A stretch of 64,000 nt of DNA, from contig UWYS01000003.1 in the NCBI GenBank assembly GCA_900291925.1, positions 434,001-498,000 of the forward strand, given 5' to 3'. This document shows, piece after piece, positions 4,084-16,737 of this stretch. Below the pieces are notes generated by a model that was not told the origin of the DNA, ran no database searches, and saw nothing but the letters and a program-made list of their open reading frames with translations. Position 1 is the first letter of the stretch. Each line of letters starts with the position of its first letter. Source of the stretch: Thecaphora thlaspeos (lineage: Eukaryota; Basidiomycota; Ustilaginomycetes; Urocystidales; Glomosporiaceae). Both the position numbers and the translations under genes were made by a program.

Positions 4084-4444
4084 GCAGTGTGTGTAGATTC
4101 ATGGGCGAGGGGTCCCGTTGATAGTACGTGCAATACCATTCTTGATGCGAAGAGCTTGATTGTAGCCTGGGGAGGTTGGGATCGACTGTGCCGTTTTGCG
4201 AGCGTGTCGTGTGCGTACGTGTGCGCTGTCGTAGGGATGACCGCGCCTTTTTGGACGCTGATGCTCGCGCTGGTCGAGTCCGCCGGCCGGCGGATGTATC
4301 GGTGCTTCGCTGCAGCTGCAGGCGCAGTGTGGTTCAAGTGAGCTTGCCCTTCTCGACCCTTGCCTCCTCGACTCTTGCCCGACGACCACTCTGAACTCTA
4401 CCACCACCTCACCTCATACCCTCGCACCCGCCACTTCTTCCAAC
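4084..4444. other. Intergenic, promoter/leader of the dihydroorotase gene
   Basis: No gene seen. The last 60 bases before 4445 are CA/CT-rich (CACCACCTCACC style), typical of a fungal 5' leader. Confidence 0.45.
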
Positions 4445-5723
4445 ATGACGCAAGCGCCTTCGGAACTGACGATCCCATCGCCTGCCGACTTCCACGTGCA
4501 CCTGCGACAGGGCGCCATGTCGTCTCTCGTGACGCCGCACGTCTCCGAGGGCGGCATCACGTTAGCCTACGTGATGCCCAACCTCGTACCCCCCATTACA
4601 TCCACCTCTTCTGCCCAGTCCTACATCTCGGGCCTACAAAAGCTTTCACCCTCCACCACTTTCCTCGCCACCCTCTACCTCTCCCCGACGCTGACGCCGG
4701 AAGAGATCCGCACCGCCGCCGCTACGGGCATCGTGCGAGGCGTCAAGTCCTACCCTCGCGGCGTCACGACCAACTCGGACGGCGGCATTGAGGACTACGA
4801 GACTTACTACTCCATCTTCGAGGAGATGGAGAGGTGCAATATGGTCCTCAACTTGCACGGAGAGCTGCCGAGCGACATCGATAGGGGAATCTGCGTCATG
4901 AACGCCGAGGAAGGGTTCCTCAATCATTTGCACAAGATTCACAAGCGCTTCCCCAACCTCCGCATCGTCCTCGAGCATGCCACAACTGCCAAGGCCGTGG
5001 AGGCGGTCAAGCAGTGTGGCGACACGGTGGGTTGCACCATCACGCCGCATCATCTCCAGCTCGTCGTCGATGACTGGGCGGGCAAGCCGCTCAACTTCTG
5101 CAAGCCCGTCGCAAAGCTCCCGAGCGACAGGCAGGCGCTGAGGGATGTGATTCGCTCCGGTGAGTACACCCTGCTTGAGTCGATGACGATGGCGACGGCA
5201 TCAAAGCGCTGATCTGACCTTTTCCAACCGTCATCTGACTCGCATCTGCACGGCACTACCAGGACACCCTCGATTCTTCCTTGGCTCCGACTCGGCGCCC
5301 CATCCGCTGGCCAACAAGTATCCCTCGGCCGTCACCCACGGTGCGCCCGCCGCGAGACAGACGTCCACCGGCGACGACCTCGAGCCGACCGGCGTCATCG
5401 CGTGCGGCTGCGCAGCCGGCGTCTACACTTCGCCCATCCTCGTGCCCCTCTGCGCAACACTGCTCGAGAGCTTCGGCGCCCTCGACCGGCTGGCCAACTA
5501 TGTCAGCCTCAACGGTCGCAGGTTCTATGGCTACGACGCGCCAGAACAACTCGAACAGGGCACCATCAAGCTGCGCAGGACGCAGGCGGGAAGCTCGGCC
5601 GGCGTCGTGCCGCCCGTCTACGTCCACCCGGACTCCGTAGCGCTCTCGGAAGGCGAGGCGTCCAAGATCCAGATCGTACCGTTCTGGGCCGGCAAGAAGC
5701 TTGCCTGGGAGATTGTCAACTAG
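4445..5723 (+). CDS. URA4: Dihydroorotase (URA4/PyrC type), 391 aa, 2 exons
   Basis: Catalyses the reversible cyclisation of carbamoyl-aspartate to dihydroorotate in de novo pyrimidine synthesis, in the cytosol. Exons 4445-5159 and 5263-5723, joined in phase 1 (G/GA). The zinc ligands are visible: DFHVHLRQG near residue 17 (HxH), the carboxylated lysine in GVKSYPRG near residue 98, His in NLHGE near 139, EHATT near 178 and the catalytic Asp in FFLGSDSAPH right after the splice junction. Length matches the roughly 350-390 aa of the type II homodimeric enzyme of fungi and enterobacteria rather than the CAD-fused form. The first ATG lies eight residues before the conserved core. The gene is convergent with the HEI10-like gene, whose stop is at 5829. 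Confidence 0.96.
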
Positions 5724-5828: not shown

Positions 5829-8582
5829 TCAAAGCCCAGTTGTATAGCGGAATCCTTCGCTGCCTGCTTTCGTGACGGCCGATCCAATGCCAAAAATGTC
5901 GGAGGCACCAGGGCTGCGTCAGAGATGACCTCCTCACGCCAGCTCGCGCTCTGGCCGTGACTCACCGGGCAGCGTCGAGAGGAACCCTTGCCTCGGTCTC
6001 GCCGGCTTACGCTCTGTATCTCGCAACGGGCCCTCCCTCGCCTGGTCAGGTGTGAGCTTAGGACGATGTCGATGATGATGGTGATCATGATGGTGCTGGT
6101 TACGGCCTCCGCCGCTGCGCGAGTGACCCTGGCCTTGAGACACGCCCTGGTTTTGATGACTGGCAGGCCCGGCGACCTGTTGGCGACGATCGCGATTGTC
6201 GACGCCTTGTCAGAGACTCAGGCAATGAAGCCACGCGAGCTCTGCAAAGTTGAGCGCATTACTCACCCAGCCGACGGCGACGCTCCCGCCGAGGGTATCC
6301 TTTCCCGCAGTCACGGCGGCGGTCACGTCCCTGCCCAAGCCCGCCTTCAAGGCTGGTCCGTAGACAGCCTCCTTCCGAGCGCTGGGGAGACCTGCGCCCC
6401 TTCCCGCGTTTTGCCAGAATGGTTCCGGCTTGCGACCTCGTTTCTCTCTCAGATCGCCCTAACATGAAGGATCCGGTTCGACCTCTGTGGTGAGCGAGGC
6501 TGTGCACAGGCAAGATTCTCCTAGCATTTTGCTCAGACAGGCGCTGTACCACCTACCTGTGGAGAGAACATCTGTTCGGGTGCCGAGCCTACCGACGCGG
6601 TGCGGAATCGTGTGACATCGCGTTCCTCCGGCGCAGAGCCGGTGCTGGTGACGGTGCCGAGCAAGCGATCGTGCTGCGTCTAGTCTCAGGGATTCGGTAT
6701 TGAGCACCAAGTGAGACCCGTGCTGAGGCTGGTGGAAGAGGAAGAGAGGGAGCTCGGAGTGACCTGCTCTAATCCGCGCCGGGGACTCACCTTGAGCTTA
6801 AGGTAATCCCTCTGCGAGCTTCTGACGGTTTCCTCAAGCTGCTGCGTCTTGACTCGCTCGAACCGCAACTCTGTCCGGAAGTCCCGAAAGTTCCACTTGC
6901 ATCGGGTCAGCAGAGCTTGAAAACAGCGGCCGTAGGCTAATAATGGCTTTCGAGCGGGCTCACCGTCCTCCAGGCCTGTAGACACCCGGCCGGTGGGGGG
7001 GTGGGGTGGGGGTGGGGGGCAACCCGAAGGCAGAAAAGCGCGACCAGATCAACAGGGTAAGTGTGACTCGGCAGCCCTGACGTTGAGCGAGTGAGGTTTT
7101 CCGTGTAACGCTCACGTCTGACTCTCTCTTGCGCTCGTTCGACCTCGGTGTTCGCTGTAGTGCTTGAAGGACGGCACAACAGTTCGAGTCGTCACCTGTC
7201 TCTTTAGCTCGACGCGTCCGGCGAGAGACATTGTAGCCATTAGTGGATCCATGGCGGGGGCAAGGCCCAGCTCTTTGACTTGCCTTCCAGCACGAGACTA
7301 CAGCCGTACGGACAGTTCCGCAGTAAGATCTCAGCCTAAAAAGCAAGCATCACCCGTTCCTAGTGGCGCGGGGGGCCGTGACATGTACGAACCTCTGCAT
7401 GCGCTTCTCCAGCACGGCGTTCCTCTCCTGGGCGTTTTTGAGTATCATCGCCTGGAACGCTGCCTGGTGTGTTCGAAGCAGCCACCGGACAAAGTTGCAT
7501 AGTCGCAGGCGCAGAGGGTGAGAGTGTATCTCTGTGCGTGAGGCATGCATGCTGCTGTCGTCCAGTCCTTCGGGCTTCGAGCTTGCATACCTCTTGAGAG
7601 CACTGGGCGGCGGCAACGGAAAAGCATCGTTCACGGCGCGATTGAAGCTTCAACAACGAAGCACATGGCCGGAACATGATTTGCTCGAGCTGAGCTCGGC
7701 AATGCAGAGCTGTCCCTCTACACACCTGATACTGCCAGAACTGAAGGCTGCGTGCCGCAATCTCCACGACGATGGAAGGTGCAAGTCCGGCCAGGACAGA
7801 CTGTCGTTGGTTCGGCGCCATCCGGTTGCAACCGTCGACGAGCATGAGTTAGGTGTACTCTGCGAGTCAGCGGCTGCAGCGTCTCGACGATGTTCTCGTA
7901 ATCGGTGCGAGCTATTCACGGAGCGGTAGTCTGCAGACGGATTGAGCGAGCTGACGACCACATCGTCTGGGCGGTCCAGTACGGCGTCGCACGCCGGACA
8001 CGTCCGATCGTTGGTGAAGAGCTCATTGGCGCAAGAGACTGGATGCAAGCCGAGCAAACGAAAGGGCGTTCGGAGATTATAGCGTCGGCTTGACCGTTGT
8101 TCGGTGATCTTGTCATGCTGAGATAGAAAATAGGCATGGCGATGCGATGTGGTCGAGTCCTATACGTACTGCAGAAAATGTCTGGACACCCCAAAGCGTA
8201 AAAAATATGGAGCTTTCAGTAACGAACAGCATGACGCCATATCACCGCTCATAAGTTCCCTCCCGGGTCTCTGGGTGCCACTCACGTAAACAGGTCGTTA
8301 CCACCGCTTTCCCTGAAGGATAGCAAAGGGACGTCGGCAATTGTGGACCCTTGAGGTTTTGGACGATCGTCTCCGATGTGTGGGTCACCGCGTACTAACC
8401 TTCGAGGTGCAACGCTTTCCTGCACTTGAGCCCTGTACGTGACGAACACAGGTATCATTGCTGACGTCTTGAGCATCGTCGGCTCGGCTTCGAGGTGGGG
8501 AAGGCTGGGTCGGAACTATGTAGTCTCCGCATTACCGACGCAGCCGTTTCGACTTACAGTTGCAATGGAGTGCCTCCTCCAT
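5829..8582 (-). CDS. HEI10: HEI10/CCNB1IP1-like meiotic RING protein, 16 exons, about 340 aa
   Basis: Family role: putative E3 SUMO/ubiquitin ligase that marks and stabilises crossover-designated recombination intermediates on meiotic chromosomes. Exons (high to low coordinate): 8558-8582, 8400-8432, 8286-8312, 8170-8181, 7920-8038, 7726-7800, 7591-7602, 7389-7463, 7314-7335, 7116-7154, 6964-6975, 6791-6870, 6593-6684, 6267-6391, 5966-6205, 5829-5863. All phases agree. The spliced RING reads C-N-W-L-K-C, then TTCLHIFCISCANELF and TCPACD, the same Cx4C and CxHxxC layout as human CCNB1IP1. It is followed by NPSADYRSSVLAGL and SLQFWQYQ, which align with the family-specific region after the RING, and then a coiled coil (QERNAVLEKRMQRF, LRFERVKTQQLEE). 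The C-terminal tail is basic and His-rich. Exons 1-12 are well supported by conservation; exons 13-16 rest on splice consensus and phase only. No long ORF marks the locus. Confidence 0.85.
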
Positions 8583-8956
8583 TTCTTCCGCGCGTTTTTG
8601 GTCGGACGTGTCACAAGTCGGGAACACGACGGAGTGTGGCAAATAAGACGGACCGGCGACCTTGCGCAGCTGGGAGTGCAGCTCAGCAGTGATGAAAGTT
8701 AGACGGTATGGGTCTTGATGGTGGTGGTAGCGGGTGGAAGCAAATCGGCGGCCGCAAGCAGCCCTTAAAGGCGCTCCTTTATTTCGGTGAAGGCTGGACC
8801 GCACCGGGCCAGCACTGCATCAGACAAAAGGAGCAGATAGGCTCTGAATGAGAGCCCTACAAAGCCATTGTAGTAGAGTGGTTGTCAGGCTCGCCCTCTT
8901 CCAGCACACTAAGAACCAAAGCGGTGGGACAGGCTGTTGCGCGAGACAGACACACA

Positions 8957-10142
8957 CTAAGATTCGGCGAGCTTTTGGGACATTAATCCGGGGCGCCAGG
9001 TAAGAGAGGCATTGTACGGGGCCACACTTAGTCCAAAGCTGTCTAGAGGAAGCAGGGGCGTCTTCTACAAACAGCGAAGCAAGCGAAAGGCTCTAGGTCT
9101 AGGGATTGCCCAAACACATATTTCTTCCAAGAGCAAGGAAGCTGAGCCAGTCTTGGGGTGGGCGAGACGTCACCGGTGCAACCCTTCGGAAGGCGATCCG
9201 ATCCTTCCTTTCGGGGCATCCGAAGCCAGAGATGTGGAGAGCAAACCTTTCTTAGCCGACTGGTGCGAGGAGCGCTTCTCATTGTTCAGCTGGGACAGAT
9301 TGCCCAGAGTCATATGCCGGTGGTCTGGCCGGTCCAAGCTAAGGAAGCTAGAAAGGAGCGGCCTGTTGACCGGCAGACCTCTCCGTGCGTAGTCAGCAAC
9401 AAGCTCCTTTCGGGTGAATCCGAAGGCGTGTAGTGGTTCTCACCTCATCATGCTTGGCTCCTCGGTGCGCGCCCATCGGTTGCAGCGAGGCTAGTGGCGC
9501 CGGAGCCTTCCCCTTTCGATGTTCTCCTAGCTGATTGAAAGGCAAGTGATGGAAGGGTCAGCTACGGCTACGCCTGCCAATGTGGGAGAGGCTGCATTGT
9601 TGAGCGTCGCCAACAAAGGACCTGCCTTGCGCCGTCTTCTCGCCCCTTCACCCGGCTCGTTTGGCTGCCGACCGTGTCCCGCGCCTCAGAGGGCTTATCA
9701 GGCAGGATTGTACCATAGGTAGCCTGCCTGTAGAGCAAGCTGCTCATTGGCACTACGATGACTAATCTCACCGAGCGGACCGGGGACATCAGAGAAAGGC
9801 ACCAGAACGGTCCATTCTTTCGAACGTGCCCCCTAGACCACCACCACAGCGGACGAGCGACTCACCACTGACACAGCGGGCTTGCGGTCCGGAGTAGCCG
9901 CTTCGAGCCCACGGAGCTTGACAAACACAGGGTGCCCTACTCCCGAGCCTGCCTTCGTAGGGTCTTGATTCTCGGCGTCCACCTATTTCGTTCCGAAGAC
10001 GCTAGTAAGAGACTGGCCTTGTGCCAGGCTCGGCCGCCGATCAAGAGCCTGTATAAATGCCTCACCCTTCTTCCCTCAACTTAGCTCCAGCACTCCCGCC
10101 ATTACCTTCAGAGCCCACAGAACTCAACTGCTGCCGTGTCAT
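8957..10142 (-). CDS. Probable intron-dense gene, unidentified product
   Basis: Not recognised. Five putative exons chain in phase to a stop: 9866-9982, 9652-9723, 9444-9530, 9247-9289, 8957-9042. Each is bounded by GT donors (GTGAGT, GTGAAG, GTGAGA, GTTTGC) and AG acceptors, the first acceptor following a CTTACTAG-like branch site. They give 134 residues, including GHPVFVKLRGLEAATPDRK and ATYGTILPDKPSEARDT. The first exon is uncertain: an ATG at 10142 opens a frame that can leave at GTGGGC (10118) in the right phase. If so, its start lies only about 30-150 bp from the forkhead gene, sharing a divergent promoter. The composition is protein-like, but because short exons can be assembled by chance, existence of the gene is only moderately supported. 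Same strand and same architecture as the HEI10-like gene directly downstream. Confidence 0.42.
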
Positions 10143-10174
10143 TTCTACTCCAAACGCACAAACTCGCCTAAGCA

Positions 10175-11261
10175 ATGTTGCCCATGGGACCAAACAGCCC
10201 GCATCACTACGCGTCTACGTCAACGGTTGCCAACACAGCCCAGAGCCTAGCGGCAGCCATAGACCGCCACACGCTCTGCGATAACAACACAATGGAGCCT
10301 TTGGAGACGATCTACGAGTGCCACGGCTGGGACACCTCAAAAGCGCGCAGGTTCTACCTCGAGGAGTGGCAGCGCATGGACCCCGGCACCGCACACAAGC
10401 GCCCGCCGTATCCCTACACCGAAATCATCAAGGTCGCCATCCTCAAGTCGCCGAACCGCCGTTTGACGCTATCGCAACTCTACTTTGACTGCAATTCTAA
10501 GTTTCCTTATTTCGCCAACAACGACTCGACCGACAGCTGGAAGGTGAGAGGGGGCTGTTGCGCTTCGGGCCCAGAGGCCAGGCTCCTGGTGACAGACACA
10601 GCGGCTGACCTTTTGGGCGGCTCCACCTTGCCCACCTCTTCGCTCGCCTCGTCGCCTGCCTATCCTCCCCTCTTTCACCCCTTTGCTTCTCCAGAACACG
10701 CTACGACACAACCTCAGCACACAGCGCTACTTCGTCAAGCTGAATAGAGAGGTCTCCCAGCCGGGAAAGGGCCACTACTGGACCTACGATGCGCAAATTG
10801 AGCTGGCGGGGATGTCGACCCGCCGGCGTCGACAGTTCGGGACGACGCAACCGTACGGGCTGACGGTGCCGGGCCCAATGGGAGAAGAGGACCTCCTCCG
10901 CCTCCGCCCTCGTACCGAACCGTCCAGCCCCATCCACCCAGGTGGCCTCGCTCATCGCGGCAGCATCGCCGGACCGTACCCTGCGGCAGTTGAGGTCAGG
11001 CGGAGACGTTCCAGCTCTCTCTCATGGCAAGAGGAGCTCTTCCGCCGCCGACTCAGCTTCCTGGGACCGAGCACGGACACGGCACGGTGGGACCAGGGCC
11101 GACAACTTCCTTGTCTCGAGACGCTGCCGATGCTTCCGCTTGACCATCCATCGTCGCCTCTGACGCCCATCCGCAGCCTCAGCGACCACTTCCTCTCGCA
11201 TCCCATCGGGAAACGGAGCAACGCTGTGTCGTACGCTTCAAGGCGTCGCGGGACTCGCTGA
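10175..11261 (+). CDS. Forkhead transcription factor, 311 aa, 2 exons
   Basis: Exons 10175-10543 and 10695-11261; the intron (phase 0) splits the domain between TDSWK and NTLRHNLS. The winged-helix domain spans about residues 70-155: KRPPYPYTEIIKVAILKS, LTLSQLYFDC, then the recognition helix NTLRHNLSTQRYFVKL and wing segment GKGHYWTYD. The rest is Arg/Ser/Pro-rich and probably disordered. No FHA domain is present, so it is not an Fkh1/Fkh2-type protein. The N-terminal 39 residues before MEPLETIYE are low in conservation value; a start at 10292 is equally possible and would leave room for a divergent promoter with the minus-strand gene ending exon 1 near 10142. Sequence-specific DNA binding in the nucleus is expected; targets cannot be told. 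Confidence 0.88.
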
Positions 11262-11984: not shown

Positions 11985-14900
11985 CTAGAGCGCAAAGACA
12001 GGACCGCCGGAAGACGATCGCGTGAAGTCGAGCTGCCAGACAGGCGTCGCCATGGGTGGCGGGATGGTCGCCGGCTCAACGAAAGCTCGAGGTCCGCCAC
12101 CCTTCCTCATCTGCCCCTGTCCCGACGACGAAGCGGCGGACCACGAGGCAGGGTGGCTCGAGACCATCTCGCGAGCCTGAGGCGTGCCGGCTGACCTAGG
12201 GCCAGCCGAGTGAACCTCGCCGTCGTCTTCGTCGTCGAGCGCTCGTCGCTCGGCGGTCCAGCTGAGGCTGGCGTGGACGCTGTCCGACTCGAACGGCATC
12301 TCGCCCGGCCCGCACATCTTGGTCGCAGCGGCGGCAGCGGTGACGGTGGCGCCGCTCTGATTGGTCAGATAGCTGCTCAGGCCGGTAAAGGCGCTGGTCA
12401 GGCCCTGCAGGCTCATCCGGCTCAGCGCGCGAGAGCCAAAAGCGGCGGCGCTCGAGGTGGTCGAGAACGAATTGTTCTCGCCGCGCGCCTGGAAGCTGCC
12501 GTACCTAGGGCTGCCGCCGCTCTCGGAAAAACTCTCGCGCGTGTAGGCGCTCCTGGCCACCGGCGGTCGTCGGCCGCCGGTCGCGGAGGCGACGCGGGCA
12601 GCGTTGCGCGGGACGATGGCGGCCTCGCCGCGTGCATTGAGGCGAATCGGAGGCATGTCGATCGGCTCCTCGGACGTCGTCAGCGGAGGAAGGCTGCCCT
12701 CCTGCATGATGCCAAAGAAATCCTCGATCGCCGCGTCTTCGTTTTTGGAGCGTGAGAAGCGTCCGCGTCGGATCGCCATGTCAAAATTCCAGTCGGGGAT
12801 GAACTCGGGCCGCGGGCTAGGGCATCGGCTCGAGACCGTGCTGGCGTCGTCGCCGCCGGCCCCGGCGCCGCCGTGGAAGCTGCTCTGGTGGTGGTCGAGC
12901 GGCGGCGTCGCCGGGCCCTCGTTGCTCTCGAGCGAGCTGCCGGTCGATCGGAAGCCATGGCTCGTCGGACTGCCGTGGACGCCGGCGGCGGCAAGTGCCG
13001 AAGCGTTCGGGCTCTGCATCGGCGACGAAAACTTTTCCGAATGAAGCGGTCTGGGCGAGTGAGCGTCCTCAAACTGTCGGTCTCCGAAGCTCGACTCGGA
13101 CACGTCGATGCTGGGACGAGCGTCGATACCTCCGGCCTCGAGGTCGGCCGAGGACGCGTCCGTCTCCATCTCGACGGGCTGACAGTCGTCCTCGCTCATG
13201 GCGATTGTGCTGCTGTCCTCGGCGCCGCTCTCCGAGACTTCCTCAATCTCGTCGAGGGTCTGCAGGGCGCCCATGCCCAGGCCGACGGCTTCGCCTTCGA
13301 GACCGGGCGCCTTCGACCTCGGCGGGCTGTGGCTGCTTTCGTCGTCGTCGGTCGTGGGCTCGTCGGTCATCATCGACATGCTGGCAGAGCCGAGGCTGGT
13401 GGTGCTCTGGCCGAAACTGCCCATGCTGCTGTCGTAGGCGAACACGTGCCGCTTGAACTTACCGACGACCGAGGCGCCGCTGCCGGTCCGCCTCCTCTCG
13501 GGCGGAGGGTCAGAGAAATGCGGCTCGCCCTTGCTTTCCCGGCTCTCGTCTGCGATATCGGTGGTGGTGAAGCTGGTGCTGGTCCACGACTGGCTTCTGT
13601 GCAGCTGCTCTTCCTGCAGCCGGGCTAGCTCATCCTTGGCCTTGAGGTGTTCGGCGCGCTCGTGCTCGAGGCTGCCAGCGAGGTTGATGATCTGCTGGCG
13701 CATGTCACCTAGGAGCTTGATCGTCATCGGCGGCGGGTCGGCCGCCGCGAGCGAAAAGTAGCCACCGCCCACGACGGGGCTCGAGGAGCCGAGCGCAGGG
13801 CTTCGCACGGCGGATGCGATGTCGAGCTGGGCTTCATCGAGCGCCTGAACGACGTTAATCTCGTCGGTGGGGATCGCGATATCGTGGTGCTCGAGGATCG
13901 CGGTGAGCTGCTGGATGCGCAGCTTGGCGGCGTTCTTGAGCTTGCGTTGATCGCCGAGCTTGAACCGCTCCGAGCGAAGGCTCTTTTCCGCGTCCTGGCA
14001 ACGCGACCTCCATCCCTCGACGTCATCGCTGAGGACGTCCCTCTCGGCCTCGAGGTCCGCGATGCTCTCACTGCTGGTGCGGAGATCCTTCTCGAGCTCG
14101 GCAATCTTCTGCGCGGCCTCGCTGGCGGCGTCCTCGAGTCCTCGCAGGCGCGAGGATAGGGCCGCTTGCTCCTCGGCGCTGGCGTGTTGGAGCTCGGCCA
14201 ACTCGCGACTGTTACGCTGGGTCTCGAGGACCAGCTCGCGTTGTACGCACTCGAGTTGCTCCTTTGTGCTCTCGAGGAGGGCGGCGTCGCGGCTGGCCTT
14301 GGCCTTCAGCTCGTCGTGCACGGCCAGGGGGACACCCCCGAGGCTGGCAAGCGAAGGCGTGGCGCCGTGCCCGCTGATGGAGCTCGTAGGGCCGTGCTGG
14401 CCGGACGGCTTGTAGTGGATTGAGCTGCGGCGCGCGCTCCTCGGCGTGACGTGGCTTGGAAGTCCATTGCCTAGTTCCTCTTGTGTGAGAGTGACGGAGT
14501 CGGACTCGGCGCGGACAATGCTGCGCCGCCTGTTGGAGGCGATCATCGAGCTGCTGAGGCTGTCCGTCGAGCTGCTCGACTCTGCGACGGAGCTGAGAGA
14601 TGTCAGCGAGGATTGGTGACCCCCCAGCCTGAGCGTGCGCATTCCTGGACGCTCCCGAGGCGCCGGCGGTGCAGCGTTGAATCCGTTGGCCATGGGCGGG
14701 CTGAAGGCCGGCGAGGCGCGATGGGCGCGCAGGCTCTCGGGCTGCGAGGCGACCGAGGTGGGCGTTGCATCACCGCGGGGTGCGGTCGAGGCACCCCAGT
14801 CGGCCAGCCTCTGCTGGGCGTTGGCAAGCGACCAGCTCTTGACCACGACGGGCGAGTCGGTCACCCGCGGGCTGTCGAATGTGGGTGTCGGCGGCTCCGA

Positions 14901-16737
14901 CGTCAGGGCGGCGTCCGTCTCGAGCCGCGGCGTCTTGTCCGCGTCGAACGTGGACGTGTTCGGCGAGACCGGATTGGAGTGGCTCAGGATCGGCAGGGAC
15001 TGGCTGGTGGACATGCCCCCACCGAGGCTGGGAGCCAGGTAGAGGCTCGGCGGTCTGGATTTGAGCTTGAGCGGCCGCGGCGTCAGGCTGGCTCGACGAT
15101 TCCTCTTGATGGTCTCCTCTTCGGCCAGACGGCGCTGACGGCGCATCTCGTCGCTCGACGACGAACCGCTGAGGGGCGTGTCCATGCTCTGTCGCTCGCG
15201 AACGGGCGATAGCGATTCCTCTTCCTCCTCCTCCTCCATCAAGGTGCCAAGGCCCTCAGGCTGGCTAGCTTCCGAGTGGATGATCATCGAGTCGGGGCGC
15301 TTCGACGTGACGAGCATCAGCGGCGAAGTCGGCGACTTGGGCGGGTTTGCGTTGCCACAGCTGGAGCTGGAGGACTTCGGCGGGTTGAGGCTTCCGTGCC
15401 AGCTGTCTCGTGGACCAGACGAAGAGATTTCGGAGGTCGTCTTCTCGTTCTTCTCGAGGAGCTGACTGCTGGCGCGACGGTCCATGCCCTCGGAGCCGTG
15501 CATGTCGTCGAAGCTCGGCAGCTGAACACTGCTCTGCCGTTGGTGGCCCGAGATGCGGCGGGACTGCCTGGACTGGGAGCGAGAGGAGACGGTGGAGGGA
15601 GTGTCGGCGGCGGTCGCGGGAGCAGCGGCGGCGGGCGGTACGCGCCCTTCGAGCTTCTCCAAAGCCGTTAGGCGCCCCTCTTCGCCTTCCTGCTCCTCTG
15701 GCCCGTTGCTGGCAAAGGCCGACTTCCAGTCCCAAAGGTGCTGCTTGGCGTCCGGGACGCCGAACAGCACGCTGGCCGACGGCAGCCCGGACATCCGCGA
15801 GCTGCGGCGGCGGCTGCTGGCGAGGGAGTCGAACGTGCTCGATGCCGTCATGCCAAGACCGATGCCTCCCATGATCTCCATGCTCTCGCGCTTCGTGGCA
15901 ACGCTTGTCCTGCGAGCGTGCCGGCTCTGTCGTCGCTCCTGGACCGGCGTGTGGGTTACGGATGAGGATGCGCTGCCGGAGACCTGCTCGGCTGCGGTTC
16001 CTGGCGATCTAGGAAAGAGCGACGACACATCCGCGAACGTATTCTGCTCGGGCTGGCCAGCAGCCGTTTTGACGAAAGACTGAGTAACAGAGTCGGCCGA
16101 GGGAACGTCGCGCCACTCACCGAGCGGGCTGACGCCGGCAGGGTGCTCGACTGCGAGCACGATTGGCTCTTCCTTGCGGCCGCCGAGGAGGAGGCTGCTG
16201 GGCCTCGGACGGTTGACCGAGCTCCGTGATCCCGAGCGCGAGTGGGTTCGGAGGTGGCCGCCGGAAGCGGTGTGTGCAGAAAACGGCCTGGCGCTCGTCG
16301 ACGCGATGCTCGAGGCGACCACCTGGGACGCCAGGGCCTGCGGCGTGATCGAGATCGAGCCGGCTCGAGAGTGGCCGCGACCGTGGCCGCTCCGCGAGGC
16401 GGTCCTGCTGTGCCTGCGGGTGTTTTCGGTGCTCTGCATGTCGAGCTCCGCCATCAGCGGGCCGGCGACGTCGACGACGCCGGCTTTGGCACTGGTAGAG
16501 GTAGAGGCCGACTTGGCTCGCGCCATCTGCGCCTGCTTGGCACGAAAGCTCTTGAGCTGGCAAGCGGGGAGCCAGGGAGCATAAGAGAGGGCGAAGGGGT
16601 CGGACGTCAGCATCTTACGCCGGCCAAGCGTGCTACAAAGCTGGACTTGATTGATGGTCTCAGCTCACCTTCTTCTTGGCGGACAGGATCTGCTCGTCGC
16701 GAGCTCGCGCACCGTCTGATGTCGTCGAGGAGTTCAT
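11985..16737 (-). CDS. Large Ser-rich coiled-coil protein, 1546 aa, GM130-like N-terminus
   Basis: Two exons: 16669-16737 and 11985-16556, phase 0. The first exon adds a short N-terminus ending in ILSAKKK that joins LKSFRAKQAQMARAKS. This AKKKLKxFRxKQ pattern resembles the N-terminal p115-binding segment of the golgin GM130 (AKKKLREYQ). The following 770 residues are Ser/Thr/Pro/Arg-rich and probably disordered, with many SP/TP sites. A coiled coil spans roughly residues 770-940 (ELKAKASRDAALLESTKEQL and further heptads), with a second short one near residue 1000. The C-terminal third is again Ser/Glu-rich. No enzymatic domain is visible. A Golgi or cytoskeletal scaffold is a reasonable guess from architecture only. 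The long pyrimidine-rich leader upstream (16740-17700) is unusual in length. Confidence 0.8.

What the first reader, a model, noticed from the sequence alone, without database searches (positions are those of the whole stretch)
5829..8582. A complete HEI10-type meiotic crossover gene hidden in an ORF desert
Seen: no ORF over about 160 codons exists here, yet 16 exons chain on the minus strand in consistent phase into a RING-coiled-coil protein. The spliced RING has C-N-W-L-K-C and TTCLHIFCISCANELF, and the region after it (DYRSSVLAGLAPS, SLQFWQYQ) aligns with CCNB1IP1/HEI10. Known: HEI10 proteins designate crossovers in plants, animals and Sordaria. The smut Ustilago maydis is reported to lack a typical synaptonemal complex, so a HEI10 gene in a related lineage would bear on how crossovers are controlled there. 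ORF-based annotation would miss it entirely.
Basis: partly seen in the sequence, partly recalled or inferred. Interest (0 to 1): 0.88.

Follow-up and report, generated by a model that had tools for sequence, protein, structure and literature searches.

The report
Intron-riddled smut-relative HEI10 crossover gene
This stretch holds a real, apparently intact gene for HEI10, a protein that helps choose where chromosomes swap pieces when sex cells form, chopped into at least 13 small exons in a smut-like fungus; the protein family is well known, but the gene is easily missed and comes from a group whose chromosome pairing is an open question.

Summary
On the minus strand at 8582-6557, 13 exons (three of 12 nt, one of 14 nt) join in phase into the RING plus long-helix core of a HEI10/CCNB1IP1 protein. 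100 of 103 database homologues hit this place by tblastn, none hit elsewhere in the window, and the reversed window gives nothing. The best solved structure is human CCNB1IP1, E 6.6e-22. All eight zinc ligands are present. Several relatives carry insertions, probably retained introns, at the same borders. The 3' tail is not settled, so 'complete' and '16 exons' stay open (15 to 17). The family is not new: near-full-length basidiomycete members are in databases, and fragments in Pseudozyma flocculosa and Thecaphora frezii, the closest relatives seen (88-89% identity). The same genome holds MER3, a SPO11-type domain and two extra MutS genes (probably MSH4/MSH5), but gave no DMC1, MND1, HOP1-type or ZIP4 hit; most of these negatives are weak. 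Most likely a working class I crossover factor. Whether it acts here without a synaptonemal complex is untested.

The parts
8558..8582 (-). exon 1, start codon ATG, 25 nt
   Evidence: in phase, donor GTAAGT
8400..8432 (-). exon 2, 33 nt, RING cysteine 12
8286..8312 (-). exon 3, 27 nt
8170..8181 (-). exon 4, 12 nt, codes for part of HIFC of the RING
7920..8038 (-). exon 5, 119 nt, rest of the RING and the SLNPSADYRS block
   Evidence: tblastn best single HSP 2.7e-21 from P0056
7726..7800 (-). exon 6, 75 nt, SVLAGL...FWQYQ block
7591..7602 (-). exon 7, 12 nt, codes CSQE
   Evidence: matches CSQE/KSQE of relatives; the relative P0103 has insertions on both sides of its KSQE
7393..7463 (-). exon 8, 71 nt, start of the long helix
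7284..7297 (-). exon 9, 14 nt, followed by a GC-AG intron (GCAAGT donor)
   Evidence: model with it 284.7 bits, without it 273.4; insertion at the same place in P0005
7116..7154 (-). exon 10, 39 nt
6964..6975 (-). exon 11, 12 nt
6791..6870 (-). exon 12, 80 nt, end of the conserved helix
6557..6679 (-). exon 13, 123 nt; only its first part is covered by the homologue profile
   Evidence: profile match runs to residue 195
6267..6458 (-). probable exon 14, 192 nt, with an FWQN motif like those of relatives
   Evidence: open in phase with canonical splice sites; weak homology only
5829..6176 (-). tail region, structure unsettled: one exon to a TGA at 5934 (15 exons), or exons 6176-6104, 6005-5966 and 5913-5829 with a TGA at 5829 (17 exons), or a 16-exon form that runs on to about 5720
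   Evidence: three models compared, none chosen

Best explanation
It is a HEI10 (CCNB1IP1-type) gene of a Ustilaginomycotina fungus close to Pseudozyma flocculosa and Thecaphora; a search of the genome with the core protein found no second copy. Shown: a core intact over 13 exons, intron-dense, coding for an N-terminal C3HC4 RING, the HEI10-specific block after the RING, and a region aligned to a helix of about 100 residues. Inferred from the family: the protein self-assembles through the helix, uses the RING as a ubiquitin or SUMO ligase module, and gathers on recombination intermediates held by MSH4-MSH5 and MER3, so that a few of them mature as class I crossovers. Partner genes seem to be present in the same genome, with RAD51 as the only strand-exchange protein found.
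For: Pfam zf-RING_5 at E 1.8e-9 (early 150-aa version) and 5.2e-9 (358-aa version), above cut-off. Best solved structure human CCNB1IP1 at 6.6e-22, matched over residues 2-103; next is RNF4 at 3e-7 (early version). 81 homologous proteins, best 6.1e-50 (early 233-aa version). Profile of 67 homologues 284.7 bits. 100 of 103 homologues hit here and none elsewhere in the window; all 8 zinc ligands present. Fold prediction of the relative P0001: RING plus helix 80-181, best PDB matches two chains of the HEI10 crystal structure 9ges, 2.0e-8 and 5.9e-8. 11 of 22 insertions in relatives lie within one residue of my junctions against 15% expected. Partners in the same genome: MER3 75% identical to P. 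flocculosa and 72% to the T. frezii protein named MER3; six MutS loci, three best matching MSH2, MSH3 and MSH6, one taken for MSH1 by recall, two intron-rich ones left for MSH4/MSH5; a SPO11-type TP6A_N domain.
Against: No expression or splicing data. No DNA of relatives, so no selection test. MSH4/MSH5 were named by exclusion, not by a direct match, and the best MutS piece at C16 was reported with one TGA inside its frame, which may be intron. The SPO11 piece rests on one Pfam domain and found no solved relative. SPO22/ZIP4 gave no hit. Only two MutL loci showed, which I did not identify, so MLH3 is not shown. The tail is unsettled. RING activity and binding to intermediates are inferred from the family only.
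Confidence: 0.88

Rival explanations
1. It is a HEI10-family gene that no longer works in meiosis, a recent pseudogene or a gene reused for another task, in a lineage that has given up much of the meiotic kit.
For: No DMC1, MND1, HOP1-type or ZIP4 hit in the genome, with the caveats given there. P. flocculosa is known as a yeast without an observed sexual cycle (recalled).
Against: All eight zinc ligands kept, no stop or frameshift in 13 exons, 88-89% identity kept with P. flocculosa and T. frezii. MER3 and two extra MutS genes are still there.
Confidence: 0.08
2. It is a RING-helix protein of the related Zip3/RNF212 branch rather than HEI10 proper.
For: Zip3 and HEI10 families are said to group together (passages of PMC3405992); I built no tree with Zip3 or RNF212.
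Against: The match runs through the block after the RING that is shared with CCNB1IP1, and several homologues are named CCNB1IP1 by their sources.
Confidence: 0.03
3. The exon chain is a chance reading of non-coding sequence.
For: Very short exons and many junctions leave much freedom to choose.
Against: 100 of 103 homologues hit the place without any splicing assumed; none in the reversed window; E 6.6e-22 to a solved protein.
Confidence: 0.005

Closest known systems
HEI10 / CCNB1IP1 family (human CCNB1IP1, PDB 9ges; Arabidopsis HEI10)
   Same: N-terminal C3HC4 RING, the shared block after it (SVLAGL...FW.YQ), long helix; a disordered tail in the modelled relative P0001
   Different: cut into at least 13 exons with three of 12 nt and one of 14 nt; tail not conserved at the level I could test
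Basidiomycete HEI10 proteins already in databases (Microstroma P0001, Tilletia P0082, Trametes P0004 and others)
   Same: 52.8% and 50.5% identity of aligned residues to P0001 and P0082; insertions of some relatives fall at several of the same borders
   Different: those entries are near full length; the closest relatives' entries (P. flocculosa 154 aa, T. frezii 74 aa) are fragments
Yeast Zip3 and animal RNF212
   Same: RING plus coiled coil, pro-crossover role (PMC3405992, passages)
   Different: no sequence comparison made here

Membership tests
HEI10/CCNB1IP1 | N-terminal RING with eight zinc ligands | tested here: met
   C7 C12 C27 H29 C32 C35 C46 C49; the same columns invariant or nearly so in an alignment of 36 relatives; zf-RING_5 above cut-off
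HEI10/CCNB1IP1 | conserved block after the RING shared with CCNB1IP1 | tested here: met
   alignment to human CCNB1IP1 over residues 2-103
HEI10/CCNB1IP1 | long coiled-coil helix after that block | tested here: met
   by way of a relative: helix 80-181 in P0001, high confidence, and the profile match runs through it; the window's own spliced protein was not folded
HEI10/CCNB1IP1 | groups with HEI10 rather than Zip3/RNF212 in a tree | not tested
   no tree built; only the best-match evidence
HEI10/CCNB1IP1 | expressed in meiosis and forms crossover foci | not testable with these tools
   no RNA or cytology
class I (ZMM) crossover pathway | MER3 helicase in the genome | tested here: met
   L028, Sec63 E 3.3e-25, 72% to the T. 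frezii protein named MER3
class I (ZMM) crossover pathway | MSH4 and MSH5 in the genome | tested here: inconclusive
   two extra intron-rich MutS loci with domain III and V pieces (C16, C21), named by exclusion
class I (ZMM) crossover pathway | ZIP4/SPO22 in the genome | tested here: inconclusive
   no hit; no eukaryote control, and an exon-wise search can miss an intron-rich, fast-changing gene
synaptonemal-complex meiosis | HOP1-type HORMA axis protein | tested here: inconclusive
   only two HORMA hits, best matching MAD2 and MAD2B
DMC1-dependent meiosis | DMC1 gene | tested here: not met
   two hits to the Rad51 family, neighbouring pieces of one gene, which scores as RAD51 (1.8e-86) and not DMC1 (8.9e-52); exon-wise search, so not proof of absence
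DMC1-dependent meiosis | MND1 and HOP2 genes | tested here: inconclusive
   no hit for either; no working positive control for either

The most novel reading that the evidence does not exclude
This lineage runs HEI10-guided crossovers with MSH4-MSH5-MER3 but with RAD51 alone and without the usual axis and synaptonemal complex, so HEI10 would be shared out through the nucleoplasm rather than along the complex, a natural counterpart of the Arabidopsis zyp1 mutant model; the Ustilago-Sporisorium branch would then have lost HEI10 while keeping MER3.
Probability: 0.15. Interest if true: 0.7.

Novelty: new member of a known kind. Interest (0 to 1): 0.42.

Why it matters
HEI10 is the protein whose growth into few large foci is thought to space crossovers. 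Models exist both with and without a synaptonemal complex (PMC10036115, abstract). A fungus from the wider smut group with HEI10, MER3 and probably MSH4/MSH5, but no DMC1 found, is a place where that question could be tested in nature. For Thecaphora thlaspeos, a possible but unproven source, the timing of meiosis is named as open (PMC7826943, passages). The practical point is that exons of 12-14 nt seem to break gene prediction, so absence of HEI10 from smut annotations should not by itself be read as loss.

Tried and rejected
Rejected: an exon at about 7283-7196 (reading QVKELGLAPAMDP...). It was in my first queries, fits no relative and no phase into the next exon. Rejected: a model without the 14-nt exon, 11 bits worse and two residues short. 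Tail: three models scored against the ends of eight relatives with 300 shuffles each. The highest z was 3.7, for model B against one Rhodotorula tail (model A 2.7 and model C 1.4 against the same tail); the other 21 values were all below 1.3. None is chosen. Identity of the source: close to P. flocculosa and T. frezii. Size 20.59 Mb agrees with the 20.5 Mb given for T. thlaspeos (passage), but I did not prove it. Loss of HEI10 in Ustilago and Sporisorium: only a weak negative. One search scored a capped candidate list and failed to list even some members of its own query alignment (P0058, P0077); one search takes only proteins of 0.55-1.75 times the query length; and many entries carry no name. 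(120 of 290 hits listed) shows that the same engine does find MER3-like proteins named from Pseudozyma hubeiensis, Sporisorium graminicola and Ustilago loliicola. The first search of the genome used the window's own protein, so its match here is circular and is not used as evidence; I use it only for finding no second copy. zf-RING_5 in the whole genome gave 16 places; none of the 16 is the window's split RING, which shows how an exon-wise search misses such genes, and so how weak the other 'no hit' results are. Literature: no study of a basidiomycete or smut HEI10 was seen in the listings of searches (17 of 17 papers listed; 2 of 2; 20 of 26; 8 of 14); passages were read in PMC3405992, PMC7299967 and PMC5897033. 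In PMC3405992 and PMC5897033 the one Ustilago mention is a 1949 Perkins citation.

Full report
Observation. The stretch 5829-8582 has no open frame longer than 169 codons lying wholly inside it. On the minus strand, exons joined at GT-AG borders give, in one phase, MEEALHCNWLKCRKALHLEGKAVVTTCLHIFCISCANELF... and on through SLNPSADYRS-SVLAGLAPS...SLQFWQYQ. A 12-nt exon (CSQE, 7602-7591) was missing from my first chain and was found by comparison with relatives. A 14-nt exon (7297-7284) with a GCAAGT donor, the only GC-AG intron of the model, improves the fit through the helix: an HMM of 67 homologues, holding no window sequence, scores 284.7 bits with it and 273.4 without. The 12 introns of the settled part are 87-140 nt long.

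Chance. I ran 103 HEI10-type proteins against the window by tblastn at E<=1e-3: 200 HSPs, all inside 5829-8582 and all on the minus strand, from 100 of the 103 queries. The reversed window gave none. The queries were found with the window's protein, so they are related by selection, but the lack of any hit elsewhere and the solved-structure result do not depend on that: human CCNB1IP1 at 6.6e-22, next best RNF4 at 3e-7. The queries were early versions of the spliced protein that lacked CSQE and held a wrong piece after residue 121; the match used lies in the correct part (residues 2-103, of which only the last few follow the missing CSQE).

Exon borders. If annotation of a relative keeps an intron, its protein carries an insertion at the border. 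Among the 103 proteins a script found 22 insertions of six or more residues (with at most three model residues skipped) in residues 1-190. 11 of 22 lie within one residue of a junction of my model, against 15% of positions expected (binomial 1.3e-4; by distinct positions 7 of 15, 0.004). The proteins are related, so these are not true probabilities. The other 11 lie elsewhere: five at residues 60-62 or 31, four at 179-183, one at 126 and one at 153. P0103, an unnamed entry, shows insertions on both sides of its KSQE, so that micro-exon is probably not peculiar to this species. P0056 of P. flocculosa carries a 43-residue insertion exactly at DYRS.

What it is. The family is HEI10/CCNB1IP1: zf-RING_5 above its cut-off, eight zinc ligands, the CCNB1IP1 block, and the helix. 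A fold of the relative P0001 with 36 sequences gave a confident RING and a helix from 80 to 181, and a disordered tail (mean pLDDT 69.2, pTM 0.39). The best PDB matches, and the only two at E<=0.001, are two chains of the HEI10 crystal structure (2.0e-8 and 5.9e-8); TM-scores are low (0.25-0.27 by query, 0.45-0.47 by target, rmsd above 9), so the overall pose does not superpose. Identity over aligned residues is 88.0% to P. flocculosa (81 of 92), 88.9% to T. frezii (64 of 72), 65.7% to Violaceomyces (65 of 99), 73.8% to Jaminaea (76 of 103), 52.8% to Microstroma (115 of 218) and 50.5% to Tilletia P0082 (138 of 273).

The genome. G000 has 20,591,595 bases in 32 contigs. MutS domain V gave nine matches at six loci. 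Three match MSH2, MSH3 and MSH6 best, the last by a small margin over MSH3. The C9 locus I take for MSH1 by recall. C16 and C21 are intron-rich, carry domain III and domain V pieces, and are the candidates for MSH4 and MSH5. The C16 piece matches bacterial MutS (4.6e-17) rather better than any solved MSH. A helicase with a Helicase_C and a Sec63 domain on C11 is MER3. A TP6A_N domain on C4 is the SPO11 candidate (no solved relative). The Rad51 family gave two neighbouring matches, one gene, RAD51 rather than DMC1 (1.8e-86 against 8.9e-52). HORMA gave two, best MAD2 and MAD2B. SPO22, MND1 and HOP2 gave none, without a eukaryote control; for HOP2 the tool itself warns that nothing rang anywhere. 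MutL gave two loci, not identified further. These negatives are from six-frame searches of an intron-rich genome and can be false: the window's own RING was not among the 16 zf-RING_5 places.

How it works. From the family: HEI10 loads on recombination intermediates, grows at a few and marks them as class I crossovers. In Arabidopsis without a synaptonemal complex, a model with exchange through the nucleoplasm explains the pattern (PMC10036115, abstract). U. maydis is reported without synaptonemal complexes by cytology and in silico (PMC7299967, passages, citing Fletcher 1981 and Donaldson and Saville 2008, neither of which I saw). If the present lineage also lacks one, its HEI10 would have to work that way. 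That is inference; nothing here shows whether the complex exists.

Known or new. Proteins of this family from mushrooms, rusts, red yeasts, Microstroma and Tilletia are already in databases, some named CCNB1IP1. No paper on a smut or basidiomycete HEI10 was seen in the listings of searches. So this is a new member of a known kind. What adds interest is the setting and the four 12-14 nt exons. Identification of microexons in fungi is described as relatively limited (PMC11121469, passages).

Noticed in passing
7284-8181 (exons 4, 7, 9) and 6964-6975 (exon 11): Four exons of 12-14 nt in one gene, one of them before a GC-AG intron; an unnamed relative (P0103) has insertions on both sides of the residues of exon 7.
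   Followed up: partly
4322-5723, + strand: Gene for an amidohydrolase, by its sequence probably dihydroorotase (Pfam just under cut-off for its first 296 aa; the name is recalled), ending tail to tail with the HEI10 gene.
   Followed up: partly
10172-10744, + strand: Open frame with part of a forkhead domain (PF00250, 4e-9).
   Followed up: no
11988-16664, - strand: Open frame of 1559 codons with no Pfam match at E<=0.001.
   Followed up: no
8600-10000: Stretch upstream of the HEI10 gene with no obvious coding frame; its content was not worked out.
   Followed up: no
L028 (G000:C11:831971-832951): MER3 helicase gene, 75% identical to P. flocculosa; proteins named from Pseudozyma hubeiensis, Sporisorium graminicola and Ustilago loliicola match it at 42-45%.
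   Followed up: partly
L015 and L016 (G000:C11): RAD51 is the only Rad51-family gene found; no DMC1.
   Followed up: partly
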